This document shows, one piece after another, positions 1,218-56,728 of a stretch of DNA of 64,000 nt. A program made the translations under genes and the position numbers. The stretch is from Aplectana chamaeleonis. Its lineage: Eukaryota; Nematoda; Chromadorea; Rhabditida; Cosmocercidae. Every line of letters starts with the position of its first letter. Position 1 is the stretch's first letter. The stretch covers positions 2,817,001-2,881,000 of the forward strand of contig JAPDOI010000038.1 of assembly GCA_029168955.1 (NCBI GenBank), written 5' to 3'. The notes under the pieces were generated by a model. That model searched no databases, was not told where the DNA came from, and saw only the letters and a list, made by a program, of their open reading frames with translations.

Positions 1218-4200
1218 ATGGATCGTGTACTTTTTGTCTTCATGGTTACTGTTGCATCCGTGTGCCGACCAGCTCCAACTGAAAATCCAATGAAATCAGG
1301 TATAGCTAGAATTGTTCAGAGACCTTTTCCATATGTCTGCTATGAAGCCTTCTCGGCGAACAGTGAATAGAATGACATGAAGCTGATCTCCGATTATCGG
1401 TGAGGATAAGCAGGTCGCACAATCCCCCCTCTTATGTATCGGAATCGCCCACGCAGATATTAGCGTAGAAACGTGGCATAAACAGTTTGGCCACTCCCAG
1501 TGAAGAGAACTGTGCGAACGGTCCTTTCAGGTGTCGTTCATAATACCGCGGCTGATCGGCACAATGCCTGTCTACATGCCATACGGCACTATCCATACTA
1601 GAGACTCGACTCACACTTTGCCACTCAGCGGGAACTTTAAAAGCAATGTCTACGATAATCAAGAGATCCTAGTCCAAATCCACCAGTAATGTTGAAGAAA
1701 CGGATAGGAGCAAGTTCAGAGGAGCCCTATACGGCCCTAAACTTGAGTGAGCGGTACACTCAAATTAGGGCCGTATAGGGCTCGTTTGTGCTCGTTCTTA
1801 GCCTTTTTTTTCGACGTTTCTAGTTATATAGGGCTTGAACCTCTTGACTTCCGGTGAAAACTCGGAGACTGATTTTATCGTGGACGCTGCCTTTGAATGT
1901 TACTTCGCGAAAGGGGTACAAGCCGCTATAAGCTTTCAGCTTGCTGCAGTTACCTTGATGGGCTCTGCGTCCTTTGGCGTCTTCGTCTTAGCAGAGCAAT
2001 TTTATATTGCATTCTTTCTTTACAAACAATTAAACTTCGTCCAGGAGGATTTCTGGGTTCATAAGCATAATCATGAATAATGTTTTGGAAAAATAGCGGA
2101 TCACAATAGTTATGATCTTCACTTTGCGGTATTTTAGGTTGTTCTTGTGGTATGTGAACGATTTCTTTGCTTGGAAATAGTCACACAACCGCCAATTGGC
2201 TTTATCGATCCTAGCCTTGCCGGGACACGTGTTGCCTAGGATTCCATTCCAAGAAACATTCACAGCTTTATACATTCGGCTCCAATCTTCTTCGGTGGCT
2301 AGGTCAGCGTTACTAGTGAGACAAGAGAGCAAAAAGGTAAAGAAACTGCACTCTTCTTTTTAACTTCTACCACATCTGTGATTTGTGTCAGCCCTAGGCC
2401 TGACTGTCTCGGGTCGGTTCATCTTAATGTACAACGAACGACGAAACAGGAAGCAGAAACATTGGTGATCACAAAAAGTGCCGAGCACAACCAAACCTCT
2501 TCAGCCATTAGCACCGAAATCCTCTAGGTGTACCCTGACCGCAGGAAGACGATCTGATACGCTCTCTACAGCAGCGATATATTCTCTAAGTTTCTTGGTT
2601 GTGACAACCCTGACTACACTTCGGTTAGTTGGTCCATGGTAAATGAGCATGTATCCATCTCTAAAACCTTTCCAGCGTAGCTCCTAGACACAGCCAATGC
2701 TCACACGGCAACACTGTTTGTAAGTTATCGGCTTCTGGTGCTGAGGCTCCTGACACTGAGAGATTTTAGGCGCATTCGCTGTGTTCGCGTTTTTAGCCGG
2801 CCGGCTTTGTTGACTAGCGTTATACTTTCCATGCAGTGAGGGCCACAATATCGCCGCTTTTTTCGACGCCCCAGCCTTCGTGGAGGTAATATACGACACC
2901 GTGGTTCGGTGCGACAAGAATATTTCTCAATTGGCTCGTGGTAGTTAGTGTTCATAGCCAGCCTTCGGAATCGTATTGGTCAGTAATGTAATTATTGTAT
3001 ATTCGGAACAACATAAGTTTATGTGCGACAGAAAGATCAATGCTAAGAGAGTGGCTAAAACAAACAGTTTATAGTTCCATGTGGTCCCAAGATTCGATTT
3101 TAGTATGTGGACTTCCTCGGTGGCGGTTTGGGAGTGAGGCACACCACATTTAAATTTTGGGGCAGTACATTGCGTTTCAAATGTGTAGACGCACCCTCTA
3201 ATATGTCGTTATCCGATCTGAATGTGATCGGTTGCAAAAGATATCATCACCATTGAACTCGTCGTGCCCGGAAACCCTACTGTTTTTAACATTTCAGTGC
3301 CATAAGTGTAAAGAATTGAGTACTTTTTTAAACTGCAAAATACAAAGATCACCCATTAGACATCGCTGTGAACCACTTCTCGCGTCCTAAGACTCCGTCT
3401 GTACGTGACGAGAGCGTGCGATTACGCAAAATCGATGGTCATCGTGGGCACACGATTCGCTAGCCGCTCACAGGCCCTACTTCTCGCTCGCCCTCGGCTC
3501 GCTCTCTCTCGCTTACGCCAGCACCACAAAGCAAGCAGCACGTTTCAAGCTTACTGCTTCCTCACTAAAGCAGGTGGCCTTAAACCTCTAGCAAAACTAC
3601 CATCTGCCGTTGCGCCGACTCGAGCGTTGATCACCCGATCAAACTTTTTGAATCGAATCAACACGAGGTAGGGGTGTTTGCCTGTGTTCATTTGCATGCA
3701 CGGGCTGCTCCAGAGTTGAGGAGCGTCGAGAGGCGAACAACAGCGAGAACGCCCACCCAAGTTTTCAATTGTGGAGGGAATCAGACAAATTCGACGAAAA
3801 ATGCTGCTACTGTATTTAAACCTAGGCAAGAGTAGGCTTTTGGCTCTGGAAATGGCCATAATATTCAGGTTTGAAAATGCGGAAATGCGAAATTTTGCAG
3901 AAAAGGTCGGTCAGTTGCAGACAGTTTTCTTACCTGTTTTCTACATCGGTTAGACTGTTCAAGTAAACGTGACATCATGTCGAATAACCTCGTATTGCTT
4001 GATATTTCCTTTCGCCAACGCGATTGTTTGTAGAAGTGCTATATGCCTTGTTGGTGGTAAGACATGTGTAATATCAAAAGAAAGAGCTTTTGAGGCTCAT
4101 TCGAAAAATGTCTGTACGGACTCGTACGGAGCACTATGAGCCGAGTTATGACGAGCAGTCTCGATTTCGCTACCTTCGCGGCTTTATTGAGTAACATAGT

Positions 4201-7200
4201 GCGTGTATTGTGCTTGTATATGACTCGTCCTTGATCTGTACGGTTGATATGAAGTCAAATATTTTTATACAAATTTGATACCCAGCTTCAGTTTTCGTAC
4301 ACTCGATTGATTCTGTTAACTCTATCTGCCTTGTCTACAGGATAAGACGGGAGTGATCTCAAAATTGAGAGCTCTCGATACTGTTTCTAAATATGCCCCT
4401 AGCAACAGAAACGGACCACTTTGAACAAAATTATGACAAAGCGGCGCTTTTCGGCGGTAAAAAGCGCCGAAAACGCGGTTTTTTCGAAGTCGCGGGCGGT
4501 ATTGTACTGCGTTTCGAAAGTGTAGAAGCACTTCCAACAGTGCAAAAAACTTCAAATATCATGGTTATATTCCGTGTTGTTGAGATTCAATGAATGGTTG
4601 TAACTGTTTGTAACTTATATTACAAATGCGCCGTGGCACTTGTCTCTTGGAGAGTAAGCAAGCACAAATACATGCCCTGAATATCGCAGAAGTGAGCAAC
4701 CGGAAAATTGTCAAGATAATCGGGCGTTCATCGAGTGTTGTCGAAAGGTATCTGCGCAATACTGATTCCTATGGGGAAAGGGCGAAGTCCGGAAGACCAA
4801 AGAAGCTGTCTGCCTACGATTTTCGCCGTGTAGGTCGGCTTGTTTCCAACTCGACTCTAACGACCACTGAAGTTCGAGCCGATTTGTCAACTTCTGTCTC
4901 AAAAATGACCGTTTGGAGGGCCACTCGACAAATTAGAAACATCGTATATCATCGTCTCCGACTCGCCCCATGCCTCGCTGGCTCTCACAAGGCTGCGCGG
5001 CTACAGTTCGCTAAGAGGAGCATGACAACGGACTTGTCCAAGGTGAGTACAAGTTTTTTCAGGTCACCCTCGAGGAATCGTGTTTAGGTGATATTTTCCG
5101 ACGAAAAGAAGTTAAACTTGGATGGTCCCAGTTAATATGCCTATTACTGGAGGGACCTTCGGAAGGAACCCATGTTCTTCAGCAAGCGGAATTTCGGAGG
5201 TGGTAATGTCATGGTTTGCGGAGCTTTCTGCAGTGGCAGCGCTTGGAGAACGTGACTCGATCGACAAAGGCGTGGTCTGAGGAGCGTAAGGTAAAGCGAA
5301 TGGACTGGCCTGCATGTTCTCCCGATCTTAATCCCATGGAGAATGTCTGAGGTACGCTGGACATCTATGGTGGGGGGTCCGAACGTACGCAAACGCTGAA
5401 GTCATCAAGGCAGCAATCATCCGTTCCTAGGGCTGCTTGGACGTTGAGATTTTGCGGAGGTTGGTGGATTCAATGCCAAATCGCGTTTATGAAGTGATTC
5501 CTATGTATGGAGGACAGATGTGCTACTAAAATTTCATTGCCTGTTGTTTTTGTTAATGAATCTGCTGCAAATAGTAAGTGCGTCTATACTTTCGAAACGC
5601 GCTGTATAAGGCTATTTTAGCCTGTTTTCAAGCTGTTTTTTGGCATTACTCTTGTGATGGACCTCGAATCTTTCGATTTTCAGTGAAAACTCGAAACCTG
5701 TTTTCATCTGGAACCTCACTTTTGACACCACCAACGTTTTCAAAATTTGTTTTTCACTTCTGCTGAGTAGCGAATTACTACTGAAATCTGCGCCGGTGCG
5801 GGAGCGTTTCTTTCGAAGCCAGCCTTCTGAAGAGGAGGAGGGTTTCTGCAAATGGATGAAACTAGGTTGGAAGCAATATGTCTGATTGTCTATACACTCG
5901 TCCAGATCGAATTCACCCGCCAAATTCTCTGAAGTTTCAATAGTAAGCTCTACCACCAGTCTACATCTCGTTACCCTCATTTTCTTGCTGTAGGTGCACA
6001 TTCGTCGGGCAATATAAGTTTTGGTTTACTAGATGTTCATTTCAGGTTAGGGCGGTCTCAGCGTACAATGCTCTCTGAAAAAAAATCAGAGGAATATTTG
6101 ACTTCACAGGTTTCAAACGCTGTGCAAAATACAAGGCTCTTAAAGGCAGGGTTCACAATGAAAATCGTCTTTTTGTTTCTCTGCCTGTCTCGAAACGGTC
6201 ACATGCTGATTCCAATGATGACTCTGGAATCGTACAAGACCTTCTGGGAACGAAGTTTTGGTCTCTCAAATATTGAGCTAGGGGCGCCTGGTGGACGAGT
6301 TGTTCGAGGCTTGTAACCTAACGATGTATGCGAGCTGACCCGAGTAGGTAGAAAAGCTGAAAATAAAGGGAAGAACGGGACTATTGATCGGCAACAATCG
6401 CTCATCTTCCGATCTCGAGTGTTCATTTGTTTACGCCGGAGGGTGGGTATTGCGCCTATGGAGTTTTCCCTGCGCTCAAAGTGGCAACTTCGGGCTCTTT
6501 TGGTGCTCTTCCTGGCTCGGTTTCAATCGTTCTCTCGACGTTAGATTTACAGTGCGCCCCTACACCCATTCCTAATGGGATTCAAAACACACTTCTCATC
6601 GTGAACACTGCCTTTAACAGGGCAGTGGCTTGAGTTGTGTGGGCTAGGTTTGACCGGGAAGTTTTCGTGTATCTCGTGGTGTTTTGTGTATTTGCGTTTG
6701 TATCTCGCGTTTCATTATTGCTGTTTTGAGGCAATTGACCTGATCATCGTAATGAATTAAATCAAATATGATATAAGTCTCCAGGTGCAACTCTCCATAT
6801 ACCTCGGCATTGTGAATCCGTAGTAATTGTGCACTTAATTGTGAACTGGACCACGAGGTCCATTTCAACTACACAATTACTACAAATATGCTATAGACAA
6901 AACATCGGTATAGCGCCTGCTCGAAATGCTGCAGAATTAATAGGCAGATTCGAAACTGTGATTCAGTAAATTTAATTGTATGGACAAATAGAATGAATCA
7001 GTGAGAGCAGTCCCTTGTTGGGGAATAGGGCAACTATGGTACACAGGTATTAATTATTCAGACTATGCATTGGGTTTACCATGGACTGAAGAAGAAATGA
7101 GACGTCATGATGAGGTTGGCACTGACCATCGACATTGTAGTGTAGCGACCTAAAATTCAGTAGTTGTAGCAGAAATGTTATAGTTCATGAAAATAGCATG

Positions 7201-8545
7201 GAATAGCACTATGACGAAAGAAGAGCGCCTCGAAATGACCAATACTCTTCTGCACAACGAAACGGCCGAAGAAAAGGTGAGTAAGCAGGTGTCTACTGGA
7301 AAATCCCATTAAAGGCAGCATACACGCTGAAAAATTATATCAATTTTACGGAATGAATCGAAGGTCTGAAGCTGCTAATATTTAGAGATAACGAAAAAAC
7401 CGGGAAAAATCGACTGAAATGAAGATATAACGGTTCGTTTTATATTGGCCCAGAACTGGACGAGTTGCACCGCATTGGCTGAAATAGCGGAGCTAGCGAC
7501 AAATTTGATGGGATAACGACGCTAATGTACTGGTACTGCCCTTTCTGGAACGCTTACGACGTTAGAAGTGTAAAAAATGAGCCAAAATGACCGTATTCGA
7601 TCATCGAACATTTGTGTTGAGGGGCGGAGCCCGTATCGGTGGGCGGAGAAAGGATGGTTTAGTGGCCTAATACGGCGCAGGTACGGTCATTTTAACTCGT
7701 TTTCAACTCTTCTCCAACTTTGTGAGGGCTCTTCTATGACCCGTACGACCCCACTTATGTAGTTATCTCAACAACTTTTGCGAGCGTGTATGCAGCCTTT
7801 GAACAGTGAGGGTTAGGAACCTTCGGGCTCTTAAAAGTTTCTGTAACATCCGCCTCTGTTGCCACACTCGACTACTCACACACGGGGGGGGATGTGCCGG
7901 AAAGCACACCGTTACATGCTAGAGGGAGCGACAGCTGGACTCCTCCAGGACTGCGCGCACGTCTCTGAACGGCCATTCTGGAGCCGTAAGCATTAGTGAA
8001 CTTGACGGGGCAGAGCAAGGGCAGGACGCTGCCCTTGTCTGCACTGTCAAATCGCTCAAAAAATGCTCAGGCGGAGTCAATGAAAGCAGCGGCGACGATG
8101 ATCAGCTTTATTGACTGGCTGGGCGAAATTTTTCAGGAGTATCCATTGAGTGTGAGTGTAACTTTGATTTCTCCTGTGCAGAACGAGCATATGGAAAACA
8201 ACTATTTGAAGGTTCAAGTTGCTTCAAGTTTGATTATCGACCTGATCTTTGCCAGCAGTACTTTGAAGATGTCATCGGAAGAGTTAGAGGAGAAGGTGAG
8301 GCTTTTCAAAAGACAATGCCTTTTTATTATTGTCCCTTTTACGTGTTTAGATTATGGATACAGCTAGTACTCTTACCCCCGAAGAAATAGACGACATGGA
8401 GCAGCTTAGTGCGGCCGTTGAAGTAAGTTTCACATCAGTAGTGACTTCAAAAGAAGTTTTTCAGGAATCAATTGTTCTACTTTAATAGGAAATGGCGCAT
8501 TATCTAGGAATAACGTATCTCAAGAATCCAGGACAGTCATACTAA
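1218..8545 (+). CDS. Paralogue 1: small secreted helical protein, 7 exons
   Basis: Exons by homology to the other four copies: 1218-1299, 7062-7114, 7184-7276, 8071-8151, 8212-8295, 8351-8422, 8489-8545 (522 nt, 173 residues, no internal stop). All have GT donors and AG acceptors; intron 1 is phase 1 and the rest phase 0. Exon 1 encodes a signal peptide (MDRVLFVFMVTVASVC) followed by RPAPTENPMK. Exon 2 gives an acidic WTEEEMRRHDE. Exon 3 starts FMKIAWNSTMTKEERLEM and carries two N-glycosylation sequons (NST, NET). Exon 4 has the family hallmark FIDWL, and exon 6 LTPEEIDDM. No cysteine remains after the signal peptide. Intron 1 is 5.8 kb and holds a Tc3-like element and a MITE; intron 3 holds another MITE. 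The last codon is a TAA where genes 3 and 5 have GAA, so the tail is shortened. An alternative exon 2 acceptor at 7046 adds five residues in frame. Function unknown; possibly SXP/RAL-2-like. The link between exon 1 and the body is inferred from gene 2. Confidence 0.72.
1300..4504 (+). other. First part of gene 1 intron 1, no further gene seen
   Basis: Apart from the 62-bp hairpin at 1722-1783, I found nothing I can name. The short open frames (for example 2030-2332 minus and 3405-3671 plus) show no motif and no homologous copy elsewhere in the window. Confidence 0.45.
1722..1783. repeat. Near-perfect hairpin with 28-bp arms
   Basis: The arms GAGCCCTATACGGCCCTAAA and TTAGGGCCGTATAGGGCTC are complementary and continue through CTTGAGTG/CACTCAAA around a short loop. 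It is not a protein feature. It may be a tiny foldback element inside intron 1 of gene 1. Confidence 0.65.
4507..5604 (+). mobile_element. Degenerate Tc3-like DNA transposon
   Basis: The ends CTGCGTTTCGAAAGTGTAGA (left) and the complement of CTTTCGAAACGCGCTG (right) form terminal inverted repeats, each flanked by TA, giving a 1.1-kb element. The open frame at 4626-5087 reads as the helix-turn-helix N-terminus of a Tc1/Tc3 transposase (RKIVKIIGRSSSVVERYL, SGRPKKLSAYD). Frameshifted pieces further on match the catalytic core of that family: IFRRKEVKLGW near 5095-5125, then WPACSPDLNPMENV near 5302-5350. Several frameshifts and a stop after MENV show it is dead. It lies in intron 1 of gene 1. 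A short intron may begin near 5041 (GTGAGT). Confidence 0.8.
6140..6617 (+). mobile_element. MITE family A, copy 1
   Basis: About 478 bp bounded by TTAAAGGCAGGGTTCACAAT and the inverted end ATCGTGAACACTGCCTTTAA. The body matches copies at 9117, 9798, 26306 and 48238 (for example the block around CTGGAATCGTACAAGACC). There is no coding capacity, and the open frames inside are not genes. It sits in intron 1 of gene 1. Confidence 0.82.
7309..7802. mobile_element. MITE family C, copy 1
   Basis: The ends TTAAAGGCAGCATACACGCT and GCGTGTATGCAGCCTTTGAA are inverted repeats. The interior has further self-complementary text (AAAATGACCGTATTCG against TACGGTCATTTT). The second copy is at 50402-50862. 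It lies in intron 3 of gene 1, and its right end has decayed from TTAA to TTGA. Confidence 0.75.
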
Positions 8546-15164: not shown

Positions 15165-16985
15165 ATGAAGCGTGTTCTTCTTGTCTCTATGGTTATTGGA
15201 GCAGTCATCTGTATGCCAGCTTCAACTGGAAAAAATTCAGGTATGATTATTTTTGCGATTCTTCACATGTGATTCATATCGTCTGCTTCCATGAAAGAGT
15301 GAGTCTCACACATCTATGAGGTGCCTACCGGAACGGAGAAGCCTCATTATTCGATCGCTTATCATCACCTCTATTAGCATGCTTGCTGCCTTACACTCTC
15401 ACGCTTGCAAGTGGAACAATTGAATGGGTGCCGCCCACTCCAAGCGAAGAGACCATGCAGTTCTGTTCCTATGTGAGCGAAGAGGGAGATATAACATGGA
15501 TCCGTTCTACGATGGGCTTGTGATGAGGATCACTTGTGCGCACCTTTTTTCTCTTTTTGCACATACTGAAGGAAAATTGGCGCACGTGGCTCTTCTGGGT
15601 CCAAAGTTTAGGCTCCTATTAAAAGGAGTAGATTTATCCACCGCTGCCGTATCCTACACTCGAAGCCATCCTACGCGGTAAGAACCGCTATGCTTTCTTT
15701 CTGCTCAGCGGCTTAATTGGACCAGACTGGGAGAACCGACAATGTTTGGTTCAGAAATGCTCCAATCGGAAGATATGGAGCTTCTTTAGGTGATCAGATT
15801 TACCAAATTTTAACAGTCACTCCCCACTCTAGATAGACAGAACGTATGACACGCTGAAAACAGAGCGTACCGTTGTCTGCTGACGCTTAGTGGAATAGAA
15901 ATGACAGTTGGCAATTGCAAATCGTTGAGTGGAAACGAAACACATGCGGATTGGAATGCAAACTGAAATAGAAAAGAATTACAGAAAAAAAATCAATTCT
16001 TTTGCTGAGGAATCCGCAACCGTATAAGTCCGAAATTCTCGTACAGAAAAAAGCAAGTAAAACGTTTGGTTAAGCCGAGATCTACAGTTCAGAAATAACT
16101 GCTTTAGATGACACAGTGGTTGGTAGAGAAAATAAGCAGTGGGTCGAGGTTTGTTTGTAAAATTTGCTGTGCTGTAGCCTACCAAAAATGCAATAATTGC
16201 AGCAAAAATTTATTTAAGCTGATGAAGATAGCCCGAAATGACACTATGACGAGAGAGGAGCGTATCAGAATGATTAAAGTCCTTGCTGGAAAACTAAAAG
16301 CGGAAGATAAGGTGAGAAATATAGTCTCCTTTTAGACTGTAGTCCAGTGAATGGAGGGGACTGCGGACGTAGACTGGCGCGCGCGATCGAAACACCGTTG
16401 GTCGCAAACGCCGCAGGGACAGCCGCTTCGATCGCCCCACTTCGGGAAATTCATTTCTTTGAGTGTATATTTTCGCACATGAACACAAATACACACTTTA
16501 TTATTGCAGAAGAAGTTGTTGGAAGGAGCGCAGAGGGTGATCATTTACATTGAGTGGTTAAACGAATACTCAAGAAGATATTCACTGAATGTGAGGTTTT
16601 TTTGGATCCAATTACACAGAAGGTGCAAATGGAGGGCCCACAGTTAAAGGTTCAAGCTACATTTCGAAAAGTTTTTAACATACTGTGTGGACTTGACTCT
16701 CTGGAAAAGTCATTGGTGGAAAGACGGGAGCAGGTGAGGCTTTCCCAATAGGCTTATGTCTTTTTATCATAGTCCAAAATGTATGCATACGTTCTAAGGT
16801 TCGGAACGTAATAAGCGCGCTTACACACAGTGATGTGGTCGAGATCATACAACTTGGCGTCGCTTCTGAGGTAAGCTTTCTCGCGAGTAGTCATTCCAAA
16901 GAGAACTTATAGCTGATCGACTATCTTCGTTTTACAGAAAAAGGCGTCACAGCTGGGAATGCGCCACCTCATGCGTCCACACTGA
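15165..16985 (+). CDS. Paralogue 2: small secreted helical protein, compact copy
   Basis: Exons 15165-15240, 16093-16148, 16219-16311, 16510-16590, 16650-16733, 16799-16870, 16938-16985 (510 nt, 169 residues, open throughout). Exon 1 is a clean signal peptide, MKRVLLVSMVIGAVICMPAS. Exon 3 reads LMKIARNDTMTREERIRM with one N-glycosylation sequon. Exon 4 holds YIEWLNEYSRRYSLN, exon 5 VQATFRKVFNILCGLDSL and exon 6 LTHSDVVEIIQLG. The largest intron is only 852 bp and no transposon is present, so this is the cleanest model for the family. The exon 2 acceptor could instead be at 16107 (15 nt shorter, same frame). A TGA ends the protein early, yet the next codons (ATTGAAGACTCACCGGAGAG) still match the tail of gene 3. 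Function unknown; SXP/RAL-2-like is a hypothesis. Confidence 0.8.
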
Positions 16986-23462: not shown

Positions 23463-23474
23463 CTGATTTTTCAG
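23463..23474 (+). promoter_or_regulatory. Possible trans-splice acceptor for gene 3
   Basis: CTGATTTTTCAG lies 7 nt before the ATG at 23482 with no upstream exon visible, as expected for a nematode spliced-leader acceptor. Gene 5 has GATTTAG ending at 52435, 6 nt before its ATG. Confidence 0.4.
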
Positions 23475-32400: not shown

Positions 32401-35400
32401 AAACGCAAACTGCATATATATAACTGGTGAAGTTAACTGGTGAAAATATTGCAACATAAGTATAGAAATAATAATTCAGATGCCACTGTGACTGAAGAAG
32501 AAAGGAAACACTGGATCGAGGTTGGTTTGTGAAATTTCTGATGTACAATTTAACAAGAAAACATATAATGTAGCAAAAATCTAGTTTTAGGTATTGAGAA
32601 TAGTTCGGAACGACGCCATGACAAAGGAAGCGCGTATCGAGATGATAAAAGCCTCTGCTGGAAATGCAACAGAGGAAGAAAAGGTGAGCAAGAAGATAGG
32701 TGTTGGAGGAAAAACTCAATCAGCAGAAAATTTTTGCCTCCAAAGCATTACAAGGAAACTACTTCTAGTCAACCTAGCCATTTTGGATGAAATGCACTTG
32801 TATAGAATCTTTTTGGACAAAGAATTTGAGTATTCCCTTACCAGCTGCCTAAAATCACTCTGAAAAATTGAATGCGTTTCTCAAAGCCTTGTGAAAGGGC
32901 AAGGATACCCATCAGCAAATTTTCAGGATGTTTTGGAAGAATTAATCGGATTTTGCTAGAAACTAATTCAAAAATCGACAAATTAATATCGACTTCGTAT
33001 TCAACACCCCGAATAATACCCGCTTATAATTTTAGTCAAATCTGAGACCCTGACCAAACTACCGTATACCCAACGCAATCTATCGTAGTCCGTCGAAAAC
33101 CGACAAATGGCCCTCAGATTCGTGTTGAGCAATGCACAATCCAAATAACCCTCAGAGGAAGATTTTGAGCCACATATACCGTAGCATAGCGGAAATCGTA
33201 GAAAGTTGCGTTAGGCTTATAAATTTACCTCGTTGGGAAACTTTGAACGAAACGAGTCTGAAGCCGACAAATAAACTTCAGATTCGTGATCAGCAACCTA
33301 AAGAACCTCATAGAGAAGTTTCAAACCAAATCTGAAGCAATTTTTTTCAAACGCAACCAGAATTCCCCAGTTGGAATATGTAATTAAGTGCTCAACCAAC
33401 AATCTGTACAACCAAGAAGCTTCTGTTCTATGCGTAGAAGTTTGAAAAATAACCGTTCCACCAAACTTCGTCCATGGGGGTTATTTCGGGAGCATAACAC
33501 GAATATCAGGCCCGTGCAGCAGGTGTGGAAATCAGGGGAGGACGTCTATAACTTTTTTTCAGAATAGCTTCAGGCAGCTGATAAGGACATATTTGGACTC
33601 TGCGTCTAAAAACCCTACTTTCTGTATTTGCCTTACTATGTGTGTGTCAGTCAGTCAGTCAGTCAGTCAGTCAGTCAGTCAGTCAGTCAGTCAGTCAGTC
33701 AGTCAGTCAGTCAGTCAGTCAGTCAGTCAGTCAGTCAGTCAGTCAGTCAGTCAGTCAGTCAGTCAGTCAGTCAGTCAGTCAGTCAGTCAGTCAGTCAGTC
33801 AGTCAGTCAGTCAGTCAGTCAGTCAGTCAGTCAGTCAGTCAGTCAGTCAGTCAGTCAGTCAGTCAGTCAGTCAGTCAGTCAGTCAGTCAGTCAGTCAGTC
33901 AGTCAGTCAGTCAGACGGTCAGTCGCTCAGTCGGTCAGTCACTCAGTCAGTCAGTCGGTCGGTCAGTCAGTCAGTCAGTCAGTCAGCCAGTCAGTTGTCA
34001 GTCAGGTCAGTCAGTCAGTCAATTAGTTAGTTAGCTAGTTATTCGGTCAGTCGGTCAGTTATTGTTCGGTCAGTTATTAGTCGGTCAGTCAGTCAGTCAG
34101 TCAGTTAGTCGGTCGGTCGGTCGGTCAGTCAGTTAGTCAGTCGGTAGTTATCAGTCAGTCAGTCAGTCAGTCGGTCAGTCCAGTCAGTCGGTCGTCGGTC
34201 AGTCAGTCGGTCGGTTAGTCAGTTGGTCGGTCAGTCAGTCAGTCAGTCAGTCAGTCAGTCAGTCAGTCAGTCAGTCAGTCAGTTCAGTCAGTCAGTCAGT
34301 CAGTGTGTGAGAATGAACAAAAGAAATGAAATGAACAGAAGAATCGGTCGTTTTTTTCAAAATGAAACAATTCGGTTTGTTGCTATTATGATGTGATTGA
34401 TGGCTTATGCTGATAACGCGATGTCATCAGTTTCCAATAGGTAAGCTTGCTGAAAGGAGTTCATGAGCGGTTGGCTGTGTGGTAAAGGGCCCGCTGTGAG
34501 TTCGCCGGGGAAAGTGTGCAGGACTCCGTTGAGAGTGCGCCAAGAGCCGAAAAGAGAGTGCGGCACCCCAACGGGGAGTGCGTCGAGCGCCTGGGAAAGA
34601 GTGCGGGACCCAACGGAGAGTGCGCCGAGCCCTGGGGAACCTGTGCTGGACCCACCCTGGAGCTGGCCAAACTAACAGCATATACATCTTTGGAGTATTC
34701 ACACTACAAGTGTACAAGAGATCCACTTTTCCTGATTTACGTAGTCGAAAGTGTGTGGGGCCCAAATAGGAATGCGCCAAGCGTCGGGGAGGGTGTGCGG
34801 GACCCAACTGATTTTGCAATGATTTGATTATTCTATGCGTCACAATACACACCTAGAAGTACGCAGCGAAGCGGTGTGGATGTGCACCTAGTGGTTCTAG
34901 AAAAAAACATTTTTCTGGATTGGCCAGGCTGAGTAATGAAAGTTTTCTTGTTAGTTTTTCGCGGCGTCTGGCCATGACATGATCACAGAAGAGCTTACCC
35001 ATTAAAAAACTATTCAACTCAAGATGAAATTGGTGGAAGGAGCAGAGGTGGCGATCGACTTCGTGGACTGGTTGACCGAGCACTTACATCTATACTCACC
35101 GAACGTGGGGCGATTTTTGATCACCATCATGCGGAACGTGCAGTAAAGAGTACCCATCTTTAAGGTTCAAGCTGCATTCAAAGACGTTTTCAATATGATG
35201 TGTGGTATTGACTTCCTAGAAATGTCGTCGTTGGAGAGAGAAGCAAACGTGAGGTTTTTTTTGGCTACCAGTGTCTTCTTGCTGTAGTCCTATGCACGTA
35301 TCTACTTAGGTTATGAACGTCTTACGCACGCTCACATACGATGAAATCGCTGAGATCATACAACTTGGCACTGCCGTTCAAGTTAGTTTCATAATAATAA

Positions 35401-35521
35401 TCTTTCCGAGAGGACATATCGCCAACTGACTACTTCCTCTGACTAGGAAATGGCGTCGCAACTGGGATTACTCCACCTCTTGCGTCCAGGACAGCTTGTC
35501 GAAGACTCGCCTGAAAGATGA
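23482..35521 (+). CDS. Paralogue 3: small secreted helical protein, 12-kb gene
   Basis: Exons 23482-23563, 32480-32520, 32591-32683, 35024-35104, 35165-35248, 35310-35381, 35447-35521 (528 nt, 175 residues, open). Exon 1 encodes the signal peptide MERVLLTFVTVAAVMCML followed by TSTEQPTET. Exon 2 reads ATVTEEERKHWIE; exon 3 VLRIVRNDAMTKEARIEM, the only copy with NDA instead of a sequon at that site; exon 4 FVDWLTEHLHLYSPN; exon 5 VFNMMCGIDFLEM; exon 6 LTYDEIAEIIQLG; exon 7 ends VEDSPER. The first intron is 8.9 kb and contains a broken RTE element and a second retrotransposon piece; intron 3 contains the TCAG microsatellite. Exon 1 and the body are joined only by order and by analogy with gene 2, so a separate orphan signal exon is possible. 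Confidence 0.66.
24552..24609. repeat. Hairpin in gene 3 intron 1
   Basis: CCTATGAACA..TCTACGAG pairs with CTCGTAGGTCCTGTTCATAGAGG around an A/T-rich loop. Non-coding. Confidence 0.5.
25078..25150. mobile_element. Half copy of the 35749 foldback element
   Basis: GGCATGCACGTACGCG...AGGGTTTGGGGC matches one arm of the element at 35749-36032. The other arm is not present. Confidence 0.55.
25450..29890 (+). mobile_element. Broken RTE-type non-LTR retrotransposon
   Basis: The 5' part carries leader text and the start of an AP endonuclease (VRLAVWNVRSGHYVGQ at about 25742), then after a frameshift the main endonuclease frame from 25870, including GDFNARVG, ending at the MITE inserted at 26306. 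The frame resumes at 26790 with TWRNLSGRDVATLDYVL and runs to 27444. About 1.6 kb of unrelated sequence (27450-29045) replaces the reverse-transcriptase core. The 3' part (29046-29880) begins FSDDSAVFADTDEDA, a damaged form of the catalytic YADD region, then has LLYGSETWTL and the C-terminal domain, ending in a GTGA-repeat tail. It lies in intron 1 of gene 3 and cannot move by itself. Confidence 0.85.
26306..26789 (-). mobile_element. MITE family A copy nested in the RTE
   Basis: Bounded by TTAAAGGCACAGTTCACGCT and GGACTGTGCCTTTAA, 484 bp. It splits the RTE endonuclease between SFAAF and NEF. Collapsing the two TTAA ends to one leaves the retrotransposon frame continuous, so the insertion site was a single TTAA (or its central TA). 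The interior matches copies 2 and 3. Confidence 0.88.
30415..31190 (-). mobile_element. 3' end of a second non-LTR retrotransposon
   Basis: On the minus strand the text begins LLFADDVIVLVSDSG (near 31165-31120), the reverse-transcriptase FADD motif, then GGIPLPDTEKYVYLGRLV and, after a frameshift, CYGAETWASNKSS and RALKRMLMG. A short ACTT-type repeat tail lies at 30423-30450. The FADD motif is intact, but the element is truncated upstream and frameshifted. It is a different lineage from the RTE just before it. Confidence 0.78.
31191..32479 (+). other. End of gene 3 intron 1, nothing recognised
   Basis: The short open frames on both strands have no motif. I see no gene or named repeat. Confidence 0.4.
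33010..33320. repeat. Dispersed repeat, copy 1
   Basis: The phrase AGTCAAATCTGAGACCCTGA...CGTATACCCAACG and later CAGATTCGTG...AGC recur at 62980-63300 as a diverged second copy. It lies in intron 3 of gene 3. Non-coding. Confidence 0.6.
33647..34304. repeat. TCAG tetranucleotide microsatellite
   Basis: A pure run of about 67 TCAG units (33647-33914) is followed by an imperfect tail with TCGG variants to 34304. A 4-bp unit without stop codons leaves all three + frames open as SVSQ repeats; these are not genes. It is in intron 3 of gene 3. Confidence 0.97.
34500..34810. repeat. Diverged relative of the 21-bp minisatellite
   Basis: Units such as AGTGTGCAGGACTCCGTTGAG and AGTGCGGGACCCAACGGAG follow the period of the 11.7-kb array but are heavily diverged. 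Non-coding; the open frames here are periodicity artefacts. Confidence 0.6.
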
Positions 35522-40065: not shown

Positions 40066-40093
40066 CACGGTGGAATTGGATTCGTTGCGGTAT
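40066..40093 (+). promoter_or_regulatory. Upstream block shared with paralogue 1
   Basis: CACGGTGGAATTGGATTCGT and the following GCGGTAT match 1086-1113 with three transitions, ending 92 bp before the gene 4 ATG. Confidence 0.4.
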
Positions 40094-40184
40094 CGCAGGG
40101 TCCTTAACCGTCACCCAACTATTAGATTTACATTAAAACAGTAGACCGTCTTCATTCAGCTTTTTACTTGAGAAAATAAAGTAA

Positions 40185-42560
40185 ATGGAGTCCATTATTG
40201 ATTGTGCTCTTCTTGTCCTCATGATGATTGGTGCAACCGCGTGCCAACCAGCTCCAATGGAAAATCCTATGGAGTCAGGTACGTCTAGAATTCTTCAATT
40301 ACATATGTTCTCTTTATCAGCCTCAGTGCAGTGGATGGAGCAGGCATGACCATTGCAACTGGTCGTGCGGCGTTGGCGGTATCACCGAACAACGGGCTAT
40401 GATCGCGCTCGTCAGTCTACCGCCGCAGCCCTGTCCATTCACCAAACTAAATTGAACACGGGGAGCTTACTTCTCATTGTCTACTATACAAACTTCATGG
40501 GTCTTAGTGGATGGATCAACGTGGAAGCGAGCTCCGATCAACACGACATGAAGACCAGCAGTTTGCATTTTCCTACCTCATATTGATAAGGAGTCGCGCA
40601 CGCATCTGTTAGTGCTTCCGTCAGATGAATACTTCAGAGCATTTAATGCTCTTGTGGAAATCGGCACAGCTCGATATGCAGTTCTGTGCAAACAGCTCCG
40701 GACGGCATGAAGCGCGTAAAAACGAAGATGTACTGTACTCGACGTAGACCACGAGAGTCAGAAAACAGAAAACCCCCTGTCCTTAGCCTTGCCTTCTAAC
40801 AATAGGTGGCACCAAATCCCTGCACACCTTTTCACAAACTAGCGTTGATGTTGATTCGCAGTTCACCTTGCAATGAACCTTTGTTGGCCCGTTTTTCACG
40901 AAAGGGGTTGACTCTGCACAATGTTCAGATCAAACAACCGATGCGAGTTTATTTTTGTATAGCAGTATTATGCATCACACGTGAACCGTCATCTTAGGGT
41001 CACTGAAGAATGTGAAACACAATGAGCAGATTATGTGATTTAGTATATGACGGTGAAATTGCTATTCTGCGCCGGTAAGCAGTAATTCCAACATGGGTTG
41101 CTGTGAGAGAATGTAGTCTATCAATATGGAGCATGGCAAAATTATGTATTGATCTACGTAGTTGACGTAAGCTGGGGGCGACGCGAAATTATTCTGACGT
41201 GTCGTTTCGAGGTAGCGGATGCTCACGCTCTGTGACAATCGATGCTGTAGGAATGATACGCAGGCTAGGAAAATAGGGCAGCACACGTTGCGACAGCAGT
41301 GAAGGGAGCTGAAGCTGGTAGTCTTCGACTGTGGTGCAGGATCCTGGTTCAATCAGCTACCCTGCCGGAGGCGCCATCGTAAATCTCAGCTGTTCGCTTT
41401 TCCCGGAGAATCGAACCACACCTCATTCTCATATTTTTTTTGCATTATGCGTGCCCATTTATGCGAGACCTCAGGTGGCACAGAATCAGAGAAATTGGCG
41501 CCATGCTGGGTTGGGTGGAAGGGTTGGGCCTTCCCTTGTTTGATGACATGGGAGCTATATATTTTCTTAACAGGTATTTGTTCAGATGGTACATTTGGCT
41601 ACACTGTCTGAGGAAGTCATGGACATTTATGATGAGGCTGGTCTAGTATTTTCTCCGTAGCCAATCCGAGAAGAGAACGGTTTATAGTTACTGTTTTAGT
41701 TTATGAAAATAGCCCGCAACAACACGATGACGAAGGAAACGCGTATTGATCTGATCAAACCTGTTGCTGGGAACATAACAGAGGAGGAAGAGGTGAGAAA
41801 GCACAGGTTTAACCCAACATTTTGAAATGACCAAGAGGGTAAATAGATCCGACGATCATGTCTGGACCATGTTTACGGCAGTCTGGGTTTGACATTACCC
41901 GCCGCTCTGCTAATTTTCCATTCAGCTCAGAATATAAGTATGAGTATATTTGGGTATTCAGATAGAAACTCTACGAAAGTTGGGCTTAATTTCAATAGCG
42001 TATCTTTTTTGTGGCACCTAGCCTTGTTCACTTTGACACATACGGCGGAATTCGTTGGAAAACCGTGCTACTCTAGAAGCGGTTGGCGGAAATAGCTGAA
42101 GATGTTATCAACTACCTCGAATGGTTGGTCGAACATTTACAACAATTTCCCCCGAATGTGAGTGTAATTTTTTTGATTCCTTTCACTAAAAACGTGCGCA
42201 CGAAAAACTAGTTATTCAAGGTTCAAACTGCATTCAAATTACTACTGGAGATGATGTTTTCGAGCAGCACTATGATCATGTCGCCGGAGAGAAGAAAAGA
42301 GAAAGTGAGGCTTCCTAACGAAATTATATTTCTTCCTTTTGAACACCCTATTCACCTACTAAGGTGGATAACGTCACACGCACGCTTACCCTCGAGGAAA
42401 TGCCTGAATTGGCACAACTTTCTACCATTTCTAAGGTTTGTTTTGACCAAGTTCCCGAATTTATAGGGAACTTTATCCTGATTTGACTACCTTTGTTTTT
42501 CAGGAATTAGCAGAACTCCTGGCAGTACCTGACGTCATGAGCCTGATCACGCCACTCTAA
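40185..42560 (+). pseudogene. Paralogue 4: family copy with frameshifted exon 2
   Basis: Exons 40185-40278, 41586-41636, 41700-41792, 42077-42157, 42221-42304, 42364-42435, 42504-42560. Exon 1 encodes a signal peptide (IDCALLVLMMIGATAC, then QPAPMENPMES). The ATG aligned with the gene 1 start is ATT here, and an ATG four codons upstream is used instead. Exons 3 to 7 are open and conserved: FMKIARNNTMTKETRIDL, YLEWLVEHLQQFPPN, VQTAFKLLLEMMF, LTLEEMPELAQL. Exon 2 is two bases short relative to gene 1, so from exon 1 it meets a TGA, and its donor is GC (GAG|GCTGGT) rather than GT. In the shifted frame it still reads LSEEVMDIYDE. This is either a recent pseudogene or a sequence error of two bases. 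I found no alternative acceptor that restores phase. Confidence 0.68.
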
Positions 42561-51705: not shown

Positions 51706-51980
51706 TAACACTTAAGAGACCGTGCGTTCCACGGCCGCTTCCCGTAACGGACCTTAGCGCTCCACAGCCTCAGTGACTTTTTAAACTGAATTCTAGCTGC
51801 AAATGACTAGGTCAAATAGAGGTATATGGCATTCACTATCTGCACACCAGTCATGCAAGTTGTTTTAAGTATGGATATTTCAGCAATAATTGGAACGAAG
51901 CCGTTTTTCTTGAAGTAAAGCAAAAAAATCGGGTTCGTGGCGTGGGTACGCAGGGTGGACACGGGGTCTCTCAAGTGTAA
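51706..51980. mobile_element. Small TIR element related to 37724
   Basis: TAACACTTAAGAGACCGTGC and the complement of ACGGGGTCTCTCAAGTGTAA form imperfect inverted ends over 275 bp. Confidence 0.55.
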
Positions 51981-52264
51981 ACTATTGAGAAAGAGTGGTC
52001 ATGAAGTATATACCTCGTTCGACTTTTAATAAACCTCGTCATGACATGATTTCGCAGCAGTACTTTCTCGAGCAATCGACCGAGATGTTACAGCTTTGTT
52101 TGGCTAATGTTCCTGCGCTTTCGCCTTTCTTCAAATGCGAAGCACACATGAGGATCTATTTAGCCGACCAAGCACTATTGCACACTATATGGTCCTTCCC
52201 CGCCATCTGGGTTCAACTCAGAGTGTCTGACTGGCCTCGGTTCGTTTACTAAAGGTTAGTGCTG

Positions 52265-52440
52265 ATAGAATGCTTCACAAAGTTGTTTTCCGCCCAGTTT
52301 TCTTGAAGAGGTTCTCCTGTTGCCCTGGAATAGTGCTTGGTCGGCCAGACAATTTAAACGCAGAAACATGAGCCGAGCAAAGCTGTAACATCTAGGCCCC
52401 TCAGCAAGCGACTACTGAGAGTAATCACGATTTAGTCCAT
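52265..52440. repeat. Dispersed repeat overlapping the gene 5 5' flank
   Basis: GTGCTTGGTCGGC and CTGTAACATCT...GACTACTGAG align with 58125-58310, the latter having about 43 extra bases that include CGAAACGTTAGCC. The gene 5 start and its possible trans-splice acceptor (GATTTAG, ending at 52435) lie at its downstream edge. Confidence 0.55.
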
Positions 52441-52441
52441 C

Positions 52442-55400
52442 ATGAAGCGTGTTATTTTCACGTCTATGACCATTAGTGCAGTCATGTGCATGGTAACTAC
52501 GACAGAAGAGCCAACGGAAACAGGTGTGTCTAAATTTTTGGCGCTTTTCTAGATGGGGGCACTCAGTATTCAATCACAGAATTGGAGAAAAGCGCTGACA
52601 TCAGATACCTAATAACACTATCAATCAGCCTCTGATCAGAAACTTTGCAGAAATACTTGAATCTTATGTGCTCCCCTCATCTAGGGTGAGTGTGAAAATA
52701 CTTTCAGTGTCCAAAGTGTGTCCGAATGAGAATGGCGGCCCATGTGGTCGGCGTGTTTGGCAGGCGGCTATCGCGTTCGCCACTCTCGCACGAGCATGCG
52801 AAACGCCTTAACAGCCATCGAACGGGGTCGGCACCGGCTGGCAGCAAATACTGCGCCGATCAATCAGCTCTGCAGAAGGGGGAGGGGGATGGTCGCCGTT
52901 CGAGTCCAACACTCGTCCAAGAGCGGCACCTGCGACGGCAGCCTGCCAATCAGGCCGGCCGCGTGGGCCGCCATTCTCATTTGAACACACTTTAAAACTA
53001 TTGTGTTACAGATAACTTTGAACTTTATTACAGATACTCATCAACTCAATAATCATCAGTAGCGCATGCAGCTTAGTGGTTCTCCAATGCTGGCTAATTT
53101 TTTTGCCAGCTAAATTATTAGCTGAAAGGCGCTTAGTTCCTCATTACCCAAACGGTAACACAGGTCGGACCGAGGGTGCGTGACGCGCCAGTGAGCCGTC
53201 CGTATTGATTATCCATCCGACGGCCATTGTACTAGGATCAGCTTGGCAATGAAACATCGCTCCAGTGCTCCGCCGATTCGAACGACAAGTTTAAATCGTA
53301 TCCGCGACCAGATCAAGGTCGTCGTTCCAATCGGTGTTACTATCTGAGTGGCAAAAACAACGCCCTTCTCTTTCTGTGAGGTGCACGGGTCATCATAAGC
53401 CCAATTACCATTCATCTTCAAATACAGGTGAGCAACGCGGTAGCTTCTTTCTCCCATGTTGGGGGAGAGAATGGCGCTTGCCATTCTGTCACCATTTACA
53501 TTGATTAACACATTTATGTAAACATTTACGTAGTCGTGTCACCTAATAAAAATGGTACTCTAGCCATGTAGAGCTTTTCCAAAGTGGAACGGGCGAGTCT
53601 TCCTGTCCAGCCGCTGCCACTCGCCACATTGATCTCGACAAGTGACAGAAAAATTCCCGGTTCGACACACGTGCTCATTCGAATATGGAGCGCTACATCA
53701 CTCCTTCCACGTTTAGTTGCATGTTTCTTCTTTAGGATCAACACTTTCAGTTCCCGTTTTTGCTTTCCGGAAAACTCCTAGCTCTCGGTCAACTTACGCA
53801 GCGTATCGCTTCGGTTCATTTTAGGTTATTCCGTCCATGAATTGTCATACGTGAAGCATATTTATAGTCTATCGCTCCTCATTTTGAGCTTCGAGCCAGT
53901 CGAAGTAGGGTCTATCCGGTTTATTACGACAAAATCTCCCCATCGCCATAATTTGCCATGCCCGACCGCCCCACTTCTTGCTCCACCCGGACTCTGAGCA
54001 ACACATTCTTCTCTTTTTCATCTGCTCTTTCCATCTGTCAGGGGACTTTGAAGATACTTTCAGTTTCCGCGGCAGAATGTTTCTCATCATTCTTAGCTGG
54101 GCGTTTCCTAGCATTCCTTTGATGTGGTCAACGTTTCACGGTGGTGCAGCAGAGATGGATTTCAGCTCCTCTAAGACCATGCCCATAGCCATGATTGATT
54201 GTCCTTTAATGTATGTGACATATGTCTGTCCCAAACCTTAATCCAGCCTGGCATTAGGTGGTATTTCTTACAAAAATATTCATTATCGTCTTCCCCGCAC
54301 ATGGCGGATGTGGGCTTAACTTACACGGCATCTCGAAAGGATTTCATTGCACCTCACATAGCGAAGTGGCTAGCATATAGCTTTTGTTTGGTAAGTGTGG
54401 TAGAACGGTAGAGCTGGCCGTGCACATGTTGTATTCGGTTGTAAGAATGCTGAAGCTGAGCTTTGACTGATGGAACATGATAGCTATAACGGAAGATTTT
54501 TGATAATTTAGACGACGATTCGGATTCTCCGCTGACCGATGAGGAAATGGAACTATGGGTTGAGGTTAGCTTCTGGAATACTTCTATTACCTTACTAGGG
54601 CTTGTTTTGCTCAAGCTCCAATATAAAACACCACGTTTGAAAAGCTTCAGGTATATTTCTGTGTATCGATAGCCCGCGTTGAGATTTTCCTAAAAAAGTA
54701 AAAAGTAGAAGAAAAAAGTAAAAAGTAGAGGTAAGTTAACAGTTAACAACTCAAGCCCTAGAAAGGGAGGAGTTTGCTTGGCATACGTGACGCGCGTGGC
54801 GGAAAACCGCTGCGTTCACGTCGTCGTTGGGGCGTGTTATCCGAGCGCCAACTAGATTTTTCTGAGGGCCCACGGTTAACGCGCTCCAACAAGTCGCGTG
54901 CGCCACGTGTGCCAGCCGAATTGCTTTTTTGCCCCACCTTTGAGTTCGACCAACATCCCAAAGTTTCCGGGGGAATGAAATCACTGTGTTCAATGTTTTG
55001 AATTACTAACATAGTGAAAGTTTGCCTTTTGCGGAACCCCTAGTGTAAATAGAATATTTGAACATATTTGGTTGATGCAAAGGTTTCCGGGCTTTTCACG
55101 ACTTTGAATAAAAACATTTATTCCAAAAACAAACAAGGCTCGCCCAACAAAATAATTTCCATCACATTCAAGGATCTTTCGCCACCGATCGGGCAGATCA
55201 TGAATTCCCGACGCGTGGAACTCTGGCTGTTTCCAGTCGAAGTAGTCTTTTAATGCCATTTTGACTTCGTCATCGTTAGTGAACTGTTTTCCATTCAGGA
55301 AGTGCTGCATCGAGCGTGAAAGATGGTTGTCGGAAGGGGCAAGTTCTGGGCTATACGCAGGGTGAAGAAAAACTTCCCAGCCCGGATCTAGGTCACTGGG

Positions 55401-56728
55401 ATGAACGCTGTTCGCCTTCTTCACGACATAGCTCGGCCACACGTATCTTGGATAACCTGACAGAAACTGCTGGACCTGGGCCGGGAAGTTCTTCCTCTCT
55501 CTCCACATACAGCACAGATCTTGACCCTTCCGACTACCATCTGTTCCGCTCGATGCAGCGCTTCGTCGATGGAAAATAGTTCACTAACGATGACGGAGTC
55601 AAAATGACCTTAGAAGCATACTTCGACTCGAAACAACCAGAGTTCTACGCGTCGGGAATTCATGATCTGCCACCCATCGGTGGCTAAGGATACTTGAATG
55701 TGATGCAAATTATTTTGCTGGGTGAGCCTTGTTTGTTCTTGAAATAAATGTTTTTTATTCAGTCGTGAAAAGTCCGAAACTTCTGCATCAACCTAATAGA
55801 TGTCGGGTCTGGTAATCGGACAATTTTGGATAATTAACGTTTTGAATCACTTAGCAATAAATTGGGCTGCGAAAATTGTATCGTCTGAATAGTACAAATG
55901 TTTCCAGTCAAGAAACAGTATTATAGTTGATCATGAAACTGGAGGTGGAGAGATAAACTGTTTTTCTTCTTATCAGAAAGTTTTGTGATGGGGTTTACAG
56001 CGGTTACATATCTTCAGGTTCTGAAAATAGTCCGAAACAGTACGATGACGATAAATGAGCGTATTGAGATGATCAAAAGTTTGGCAGGAGACCGAACAGA
56101 GCTAGAAGAGGTGAGGGAATTCAGAAAATCTCATTTTACAATAGAGTCTCTCGAATTTTGACCTTGTTGAGGCCTCTGAATTTGCTGAGATTTGGAGGCA
56201 CAACATTTCGTTAAAATCTTTCAGAATATTTGTGTCTATTAAGAGAGGCATAGAGGAAGAAGCTGAAAAGGTGATCAACTACAATGAATGGTTGCTCGAA
56301 CATTTGCAGTCATATACGCCTAATGTGGGGAAAAATTCATCCCGCTCATGAAAAACATGCACTCGACAGTCATACTTCATTAAGGTTCAAGCCGCATTTA
56401 GGCGGATTCTAGACATGTTGATTGACATCGAGGCACTCAATATGTCATCGGAACAAAGGGTGGAGAAGGTGAGGCTTCCTAAGTCGGCCAACTGCTTCTG
56501 CATGTATTCCAACACATTAAGATTGTCGAAATTGTATCTATGCTTACCCACGACGAAATGGACCAGATCTTGGAACTTGGCGACGTTAGTTTAAACATAA
56601 TTGTCCTCTAAGAAGGTATCTATTGTTGCCGGACTGTTTTCGTTGAGCAGGAGGTGCCGCTACACATTGCGCCACTACTCGAACTGGTGCTTTATAGACA
56701 GCCACCCGAAGACTGGCCGGAGAGATGA
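52442..56728 (+). CDS. Paralogue 5: small secreted helical protein
   Basis: Exons 52442-52523, 54512-54564, 56018-56110, 56244-56324, 56385-56468, 56522-56584, 56651-56728 (534 nt, 177 residues, open). The signal peptide MKRVIFTSMTISAVMCMV is followed by TTTEEPTET, close to gene 3. Exon 2 is very acidic (DDDSDSPLTDEEMELWVE). Exon 3 reads VLKIVRNSTMTINERIEM with a sequon, exon 4 YNEWLLEHLQSYTPN, exon 5 VQAAFRRILDMLIDI, exon 6 LTHDEMDQILELGD. Exon 6 is 63 nt rather than 72, losing three codons before the donor, still in phase. Exon 7 ends PPEDWPER, matching gene 3. Intron 1 contains a small MITE and a retroelement-like repeat, and intron 2 a palindromic mariner. Function unknown. Confidence 0.75.
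52713..52993. mobile_element. MITE in gene 5 intron 1
   Basis: AAAGTGTGTCCGAATGAGAA and the complement of TTCTCATTTGAACACACTTT are inverted ends that continue through GGCGGCCCA. 281 bp, GC-rich interior, no coding capacity. Confidence 0.75.
53880..54100 (-). repeat. Dispersed repeat with coding-like minus frame
   Basis: The minus frame includes NKPDRPYFDWLEAQ and RWKEQMKK. A frameshifted relative with DRPYFDLLKMRK is at 19050-19190. It may be the C-terminal end of an unidentified transposable element. Confidence 0.45.
55068..55796. mobile_element. Palindromic mariner: two 3' halves head to head
   Basis: The minus strand (55508-55134) reads WEVFLHPAYSPELAPSD then GKQFTNDDEVKMALKDYF and GIHDLPDRWRKILECDGNYF, the mariner C-terminus. 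The plus strand (about 55510-55740) encodes a diverged copy of the same region (DPSDYHLFRSMQRF, FTNDDG). Both outer ends are mariner-type termini (GGTTGATGCA and TGCATCAACC). No 5' half is present. It lies in intron 2 of gene 5. Confidence 0.8.

What the first reader, a model, noticed from the sequence alone, without database searches (positions are those of the whole stretch)
1218..56728. Array of five tandem paralogues of an unnamed secreted helical protein family
Five genes on one strand repeat the same seven-exon plan. Exons 3, 4 and 5 are exactly 93, 81 and 84 nt in all five, intron 1 is always phase 1 and the others phase 0. Each starts with a signal peptide, then an acidic linker, then N-x-T-M-T-x-E, a helix containing (I/V/L/N)(D/E)WL, VQxxF, and LTxxE. 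Four of the five frames are fully open over about 170-177 residues. Such arrays often encode stage- or host-interface proteins in parasitic nematodes. None of these genes is visible as a single open frame, so simple ORF annotation misses them all.
Basis: partly seen in the sequence, partly recalled or inferred. Interest (0 to 1): 0.9.

Follow-up and report, generated by a model that had tools for sequence, protein, structure and literature searches.

The report
Unnamed secreted helical worm gene family
This stretch of a roundworm genome holds part of a larger cluster of related multi-exon genes for small, probably secreted helical proteins that match no named family, and whose function still has to be found by experiment.

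Summary
Five same-strand genes share one seven-exon plan (93/81/84 nt for exons 3-5; phases 1,0,0,0,0,0). Four are open over 169-177 codons; the fourth in order (c4) is broken. Four more copies lie within 40 kb upstream, one inverted: nine copies in about 96.5 kb. A second subfamily with the same exon plan sits at four other places that I opened in the 1.04 Gb genome. Codon substitution (dN/dS about 0.3) indicates real, selected genes. The host is a clade V, probably strongylid, nematode. A protein database that holds strongylid proteins returned no relative, so the family is unannotated, fast evolving or lineage-restricted. Its design may be like the SXP/RAL-2 (Ani s 5) antigens: two helix pairs round a long amphipathic helix encoded by exon 4. 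That link is suggestive only. One of 11 scanned copies reaches E=0.001 to PF02520, below cut-off; local profile comparison gives P=0.012 but global P=0.28; the similarity is confined to exons 2-3; the SXP motifs are absent. A host-interface role is untested. I judge this a real, unnamed nematode family of an ordinary kind.

The parts
1218..8545 (+). Copy c1, 173 aa. Exons 1218-1299, 7062-7114, 7184-7276, 8071-8151, 8212-8295, 8351-8422, 8489-8545 (with stop). Introns 5762, 69, 794, 60, 55, 66 nt.
15165..16985 (+). Copy c2, 169 aa. Exons 15165-15240, 16093-16148, 16219-16311, 16510-16590, 16650-16733, 16799-16870, 16938-16985.
23482..35521 (+). Copy c3, 175 aa. Exons 23482-23563, 32480-32520, 32591-32683, 35024-35104, 35165-35248, 35310-35381, 35447-35521. 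Intron 1 is 8916 nt.
40185..42560 (+). Copy c4, broken. Exon 1 40185-40278 (start codon of the other copies lost), exon 2 41586-41636 (out of frame, GC 5' splice site), exons 3-7 open: 41700-41792, 42077-42157, 42221-42304, 42364-42435, 42504-42560.
52442..56728 (+). Copy c5, 177 aa. Exons 52442-52523, 54512-54564, 56018-56110, 56244-56324, 56385-56468, 56522-56584 (63 nt), 56651-56728.
1066..1217 (+). Leader of c1, similar to that of c4 (71% over 257 aligned columns for 1066-1318 against 40045-40297). Among 36 pairs of 220-nt leaders it is the only one with a match at E 1e-3.
23468..23474 (+). TTTTCAG 7 nt before the c3 ATG; candidate trans-splice acceptor. Similar sites stand 6 nt before the ATG in c5 (52431-52435) and, outside the window, in u1, u2, u3 and u4.

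Best explanation
These are paralogues of a real, selected gene family of a clade V nematode: nine in this array (c4 broken; c1, c2, c3, c5 fully open; u1-u4 read exon by exon, full frames not assembled), with a second subfamily elsewhere in the genome. Each makes a pre-protein with a signal peptide (exon 1), a short variable linker (exon 2) and a helical domain of about 110 residues (exons 3-6).

Shown: gene structure, homology of copies, purifying selection, amphipathic exon 4. Inferred: the domain is a secreted bundle of about six helices built like the SXP/RAL-2 antigen Ani s 5, with a first helix pair (exons 2-3) and a second (exons 5-6), each helix started by an [L/M][S/T]xxE-type capping box, round one long central helix (exon 4, 27 residues; H3 of Ani s 5 is also 27 residues long). 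Inferred further: it is exported, binds a small ligand or divalent cation, and diversifies by tandem birth and death.

My probabilities: real gene family 0.97; secreted 0.9; all-helical 0.85; built like SXP/RAL-2 0.45; true homologue of SXP/RAL-2 0.33; acts at the host interface 0.4. The two SXP/RAL-2 figures and the overall confidence were lowered (from 0.5, 0.4 and 0.45) when the report was checked.
For: Gene models and canonical introns. Nine copies at C38:2777195-2873728. dN/dS 0.28-0.33 in five pairs, two of them with dS above 1. Exon 4 amphipathic at 100 degrees, p=0.0005. Subfamily B with exons of 31/27/28/24 residues in 4 of 5 opened loci; profile match between the two subfamilies 99.9%, P 2.5e-35.

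SXP/RAL-2 link: u1 (L015) matches PF02520 over residues 1-97 against profile 6-97 of 109, E=0.0011, 19.5 bits; u2 E=0.017. Local hhalign of the family against 31 SXP/RAL-2 domains (27 of the 32 proteins and four from this genome) P=0.012, with 1 of 300 column shuffles reaching the score, in nine- and in twelve-sequence versions of my family; a first run against seven sequences of this genome P=0.018, 2 of 200. The aligned stretch is mainly exons 2-3 against the first SXP/RAL-2 exon; both are followed by a phase-0 intron, about 20 and 18 residues after the N-x-x-(M/L)-T motif (14, 50, counted by eye). Ani s 5 helix lengths are from passages of PMC3945735.
Against: No copy passes the PF02520 cut-off of 29.3 bits; 9 of 11 scanned sequences, including 3 of 3 of subfamily B, show no PF02520 match. 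Unrelated models reach similar E-values with these sequences (Herpes_ori_bp 0.001, DUF6904 0.0024, INTS15 0.0045). A first hhalign run in global mode gave P=0.28, probability 0.15%; the local runs give 2.6-3.6%. Scored singly against the SXP/RAL-2 profile, c5 (14 of 1800 shuffles as good), u1 and u2 (95) stand out a little and the other six do not; my family profile scores SXP/RAL-2 proteins (mean 1.98 bits) no better than their reversed forms (2.2), though above shuffles (0.2). With the four exon blocks put in all 24 orders, 12 orders score 23.7-25.8 and the real order only 20.5, tied for lowest: nothing beyond exons 2-3 supports collinearity. The capping box is a generic helix start and can converge. 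No structure could be predicted. No transcript evidence.
Confidence: 0.4

Rival explanations
1. An orphan, lineage-restricted secreted helical family unrelated by descent to any described family; the likeness to SXP/RAL-2 is convergence of short helices with capping boxes.
For: No Pfam, NCBIfam, PDB-sequence or protein-database match over threshold, although the same protein database returns 32 SXP/RAL-2 proteins, 29 of the 30 named ones from strongylids, for a control query from the same genome. SXP motifs absent. Global, reversal and exon-order controls against kinship.
Against: The only nematode-specific family among the low E-value Pfam matches is PF02520 (that it is nematode-only is from PMC3945735, passages); a phase-0 intron at about the same place; local profile score beats 299 of 300 shuffles.
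Confidence: 0.47
2. A diverged fatty-acid/retinol-binding (FAR) or nematode polyprotein allergen (NPA) type lipid carrier, also small, helical and secreted.
For: Same size class, helical, secreted, nematode (general knowledge, recalled).
Against: Neither family appears among the Pfam matches listed up to E=10 for 11 of 11 sequences scanned; the search filters drop most matches above about 0.1.
Confidence: 0.06
3. A tandem family that is mostly dead or transposon-borne, kept by copying and not by function.
For: c4 is broken; the window holds a transposase remnant and tandem repeats; the copy at C485 (L033) looks partial or rearranged.
Against: Open frames and canonical introns in c1, c2, c3, c5; dN/dS near 0.3, c4 pairs included; full exon plan kept across two subfamilies.
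Confidence: 0.04

Closest known systems
SXP/RAL-2 family (Pfam PF02520, DUF148, ANIS5_cation-bd; Ani s 5, Asc l 5, As16)
   Same: Nematode-only, small, secreted, all-helical (for my family inferred), N-x-x-(L/M)-T loop-helix, phase-0 intron after the first helix pair, clustered genes: in this genome 12 exon-level PF02520 matches, 8 of them on one contig between 1.457 and 1.622 Mb.
   Different: PF02520 cut-off not reached; SXP motifs 1 and 2 absent; no Gly/Pro-rich stretches like those of the SXP/RAL-2 genes read here; more and shorter exons; similarity confined to exons 2-3.
Tandem arrays of secreted proteins in parasitic nematodes in general (for example SCP/TAPS; recalled)
   Same: Signal peptide, tandem paralogues, high divergence, birth and death.
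   Different: No cysteine framework (0-1 Cys in the mature part of c1, c2, c3, c5) and no domain recognised by Pfam.

Membership tests
SXP/RAL-2 (PF02520) | PF02520 profile over its gathering score (29.3 bits) | tested here: not met
   Best 19.5 bits (u1), 15.7 (u2); no match in the other 9 of 11 scanned; c4 not scanned
SXP/RAL-2 (PF02520) | SXP motif 1, [IV]PPFLxGAPxxVV (Figure 1 legend of PMC7767342) | tested here: not met
   No PPFL or PPYL in exons 2-6 of 12 of 12 family sequences (c4 without exon 2), nor by eye in exons 1 and 7 of c1, c2, c3, c5; PPYL is present in SXP/RAL-2 genes of the same genome
SXP/RAL-2 (PF02520) | SXP motif 2, [FL]SP[EA]A[RK]xADAx-[ML][ST]AIA (same legend) | tested here: not met
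   By eye: commonest form in my family is xSPNVQAAFKxIxDM; only SP and hydrophobic positions agree
SXP/RAL-2 (PF02520) | Profile-profile similarity above chance | tested here: inconclusive
   Local P=0.012-0.018, 1 of 300, 1 of 300 and 2 of 200 shuffles, probability 2.6-3.6%; global P=0.28; exon-order and reversal controls against
SXP/RAL-2 (PF02520) | Six-helix, calmodulin-like fold | not testable with these tools
   Structure prediction accepts only proteins read letter for letter from DNA; spliced products do not qualify, so none was sent
SXP/RAL-2 (PF02520) | Mg2+ binding (shown for Ani s 5) | not testable with these tools
   Needs purified protein
SXP/RAL-2 (PF02520) | Found in a nematode, with a signal peptide | tested here: met
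   Host genome carries SXP/RAL-2 genes closest to strongylids; hydrophobic exon 1 in c1-c5 and u1-u3, u4 likely; no signal-peptide program was run
FAR / NPA lipid carriers | Match to their Pfam models | tested here: not met
   Not among matches listed up to E=10

The most novel reading that the evidence does not exclude
A previously undescribed, multi-array family of secreted helical proteins, absent from annotated strongylid protein sets because it is hidden from gene finders (seven tiny exons, introns up to 8.9 kb, many AAG acceptors), that has radiated in one nematode lineage as a set of secreted binders at the host interface, of independent origin from SXP/RAL-2 or as its fastest-evolving branch.
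Probability: 0.3. Interest if true: 0.55.

Novelty: new variant of a known kind. Interest (0 to 1): 0.42.

Why it matters
If confirmed, it adds an unnamed secreted protein family to a clade that includes important livestock and human parasites, one that the protein sets searched here seem to miss. Such families can supply diagnostic antigens and vaccine candidates. Their genes would also test whether the SXP/RAL-2 helical design, whose function is itself unknown, is the root of further, unrecognised nematode families.

Tried and rejected
Homologue searches with c3 and with an eight-sequence alignment found nothing at E<=10 (59 and 2601 candidates by shared words). PDB sequence searches with four- and eight-sequence profiles gave only weak matches, best E 0.18-0.2. 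NCBIfam gave weak matches only, best 0.012. Rfam found nothing in the window at gathering thresholds. Local profile tests of the SXP/RAL-2 idea looked fair but the global run and further controls weakened it, so I lowered the claim. For the 31-sequence SXP/RAL-2 set I dropped 5 of the 32 proteins, two by hand and three by a length or motif filter. Paper searches: 39 (2 listed), (20 of 190 listed; 15 of 18; 10 of 11; 2; 8 of 10; none). The listings showed no description of this family; I did not open most of those papers. From PMC7767342, PMC3945735 and PMC8504978 I saw passages only.

Not answered: a genome search with a subfamily B protein, so the number of B copies is a lower bound from the c3 search.
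Full report
What is there. I rebuilt the five genes from the sequence. Motif scans of all six frames, frame-by-frame reading, pairwise DNA comparison and exon searches gave the models. c1, c2, c3 and c5 encode 173, 169, 175 and 177 residues. Each has seven exons; 24 of 24 introns are GT..AG; intron 1 is phase 1 and introns 2-6 are phase 0. Exons 3, 4 and 5 are 93, 81 and 84 nt in 5 of 5 copies. c4 is not open: exon 2 is out of frame, its 5' splice site is GC, and the start codon shared by the others is lost, though an in-frame ATG lies just upstream. Its exons 3-5 still show constraint in the two pairs tested, which suggests recent decay (inference).

The array is larger than the window. The window is C38:2817001-2881000 of a 1,036,593,504-base genome in 2087 contigs. 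In 100 kb on each side, four more copies lie upstream, within 40 kb: u1, u2 and u3 on the same strand and u4 inverted. I read these exon by exon and did not assemble their full frames. The other 60 kb upstream and 100 kb downstream gave four weak matches (E 0.09-0.9) and none at E 0.5 with nine queries. The nine copies span C38:2777195-2873728.

Other places. A search of the whole genome with c3 (35 matches at E<=10, all listed, a lower bound by the tool's own note) gave 17 matches in this array and 18 elsewhere: six on C1337, four on C661, three on C33, two on C1817 and one each on C485, C1578 and C8. Those 18 are weak one by one (E 0.07-7). I opened five loci. Four (C1817, C1337, C33, C661) hold a second subfamily with exons of 31, 27, 28 and 24 residues and phase-0 joins. 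C485 looks partial or rearranged. C1337 and C661 are 98-99% identical over the stretch compared, so they may be two haplotypes. I did not open C1578, C8 or the other matches on C1337, C661 and C33. The two subfamilies match at 99.9% probability, P 2.5e-35. A tree groups u1 with u2, u3 with u4, c2 with c3, and the three B sequences together.

Real genes. Over exons 3-5 of nine copies, codon positions 1, 2 and 3 differ at 0.37, 0.32 and 0.47 (69). dN/dS in six of 36 pairs is 0.29 (u1/u2), 0.28 (u3/u4), 0.30 (c4/c5), 0.33 (c2/c3), 0.29 (c1/c4) and 0.12 (c3/c5, dS saturated); dS is also above 1 in c4/c5 and c1/c4 (69). Exons 3-5 have AG before and GT after in 27 of 27 (69). A splice-acceptor-like site stands 6-7 nt before the ATG in u1, u2, u3, u4, c3 and c5, is weak in c1 and not seen in c2, as in trans-spliced nematode genes (general knowledge).

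Which organism. PF02520 (SXP/RAL-2), described as nematode-only (PMC3945735, passages), has 12 exon-level matches in the genome and none in 14 control genomes. A spliced SXP/RAL-2 protein from it finds 32 proteins at E<=0.01; the 30 named ones are from Ancylostoma, Nippostrongylus, Heligmosomoides, Necator, Ostertagia, Haemonchus, Oesophagostomum, Cylicocyclus, Cooperia, Teladorsagia and Strongylus, and one Caenorhabditis. So the host is a clade V nematode, probably a strongylid. The same search is a control: the database holds strongylid proteins, yet c3 and the eight-copy alignment find none at E<=10. That search needs shared five-residue words, so it would miss distant relatives.

How it most likely works. 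Exon 1 reads as a signal peptide. The family-mean hydrophobicity of exon 4 is strongly amphipathic at 100 degrees per residue (p=0.0005 of 2000 shuffles); exons 3 and 5 less clearly (0.11 and 0.057). Helix-start boxes of the [L/M][S/T]xxE kind appear at four places (9 of 11, 10 of 12, 10 of 12 and 12 of 12 with relaxed patterns that I chose after looking). That suggests a secreted bundle of about six helices: a pair, one long helix, a pair and a tail. Ani s 5 has this order, with helices of 13, 15, 27, 15, 11 and 8 residues and a long central H3, and binds Mg2+ (PMC3945735, passages). I infer a secreted binder of a cation or small ligand; no step of that function is shown.

Is it SXP/RAL-2? 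For: u1 matches PF02520 along nearly the whole profile at E=0.0011 and u2 at 0.017; local profile comparison P=0.012-0.018, beating 299 of 300, 299 of 300 and 198 of 200 shuffles; a phase-0 intron at about the same place. In one search, 6 of 36 rotations, which mostly keep the matching stretch whole, tied the score. Against: below cut-off; 9 of 11 sequences without a match; equal E-values from unrelated models; SXP motifs missing; global comparison P=0.28; weak single-copy scores and reversed controls. With exon blocks in all 24 orders, 12 orders score clearly higher than the real one, which ties for lowest, so the signal lies in exons 2-3 alone. I therefore do not file it as SXP/RAL-2. 'Works like' stands at about 0.45, 'is one' at about 0.33; both were lowered when I recounted.

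Novelty. No family name, no database homologue, and no description in the listings of the paper searches named. Lineage-restricted secreted families are common in nematodes (general knowledge), so the surprise is moderate. Nine of 24 acceptors are AAG and introns reach 8.9 kb, which may explain why gene finders could miss them (inference; no genome-wide control).

Noticed in passing
window 11670-12720: A 42-base minisatellite (main block 20.7 copies, 81% matches); the long open frames on both strands there are probably an artefact of the repeat.
   Followed up: partly
window 33646-34304: About 164 copies of the 4-base unit GTCA, giving a spurious Ser-Val-Ser-Gln frame, inside intron 3 of c3.
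   Followed up: partly
window 4626-5087: Tc3-type transposase remnant (PF21517, E 9.3e-9) inside intron 1 of c1.
   Followed up: yes
window 10758-11354, 54990-55508 (-), 25870-26343, 26773-27444: Frames that look like mariner-type and non-LTR element remnants from memory; no Pfam match at E 0.01.
   Followed up: partly
G000 C30:1456839-1621812: A cluster of true SXP/RAL-2 genes on both strands, six places over the PF02520 cut-off; four were read and have at least two exons before Gly/Pro-rich tails.
   Followed up: partly
introns of c1, c2, c3, c5: 9 of 24 3' splice sites are AAG; exon 5 has AAG in 7 of the 9 array copies. Possibly unusual for nematodes; no genome-wide control was made.
   Followed up: partly
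L030 and L032 (C1337, C661): 98-99% identical stretches on two contigs, each contig with several spaced family matches: two haplotypes or a recent segmental copy.
   Followed up: partly
L018 (C38:2807001-2817000): Copy u4 is inverted relative to the eight others and is closest to its neighbour u3.
   Followed up: partly
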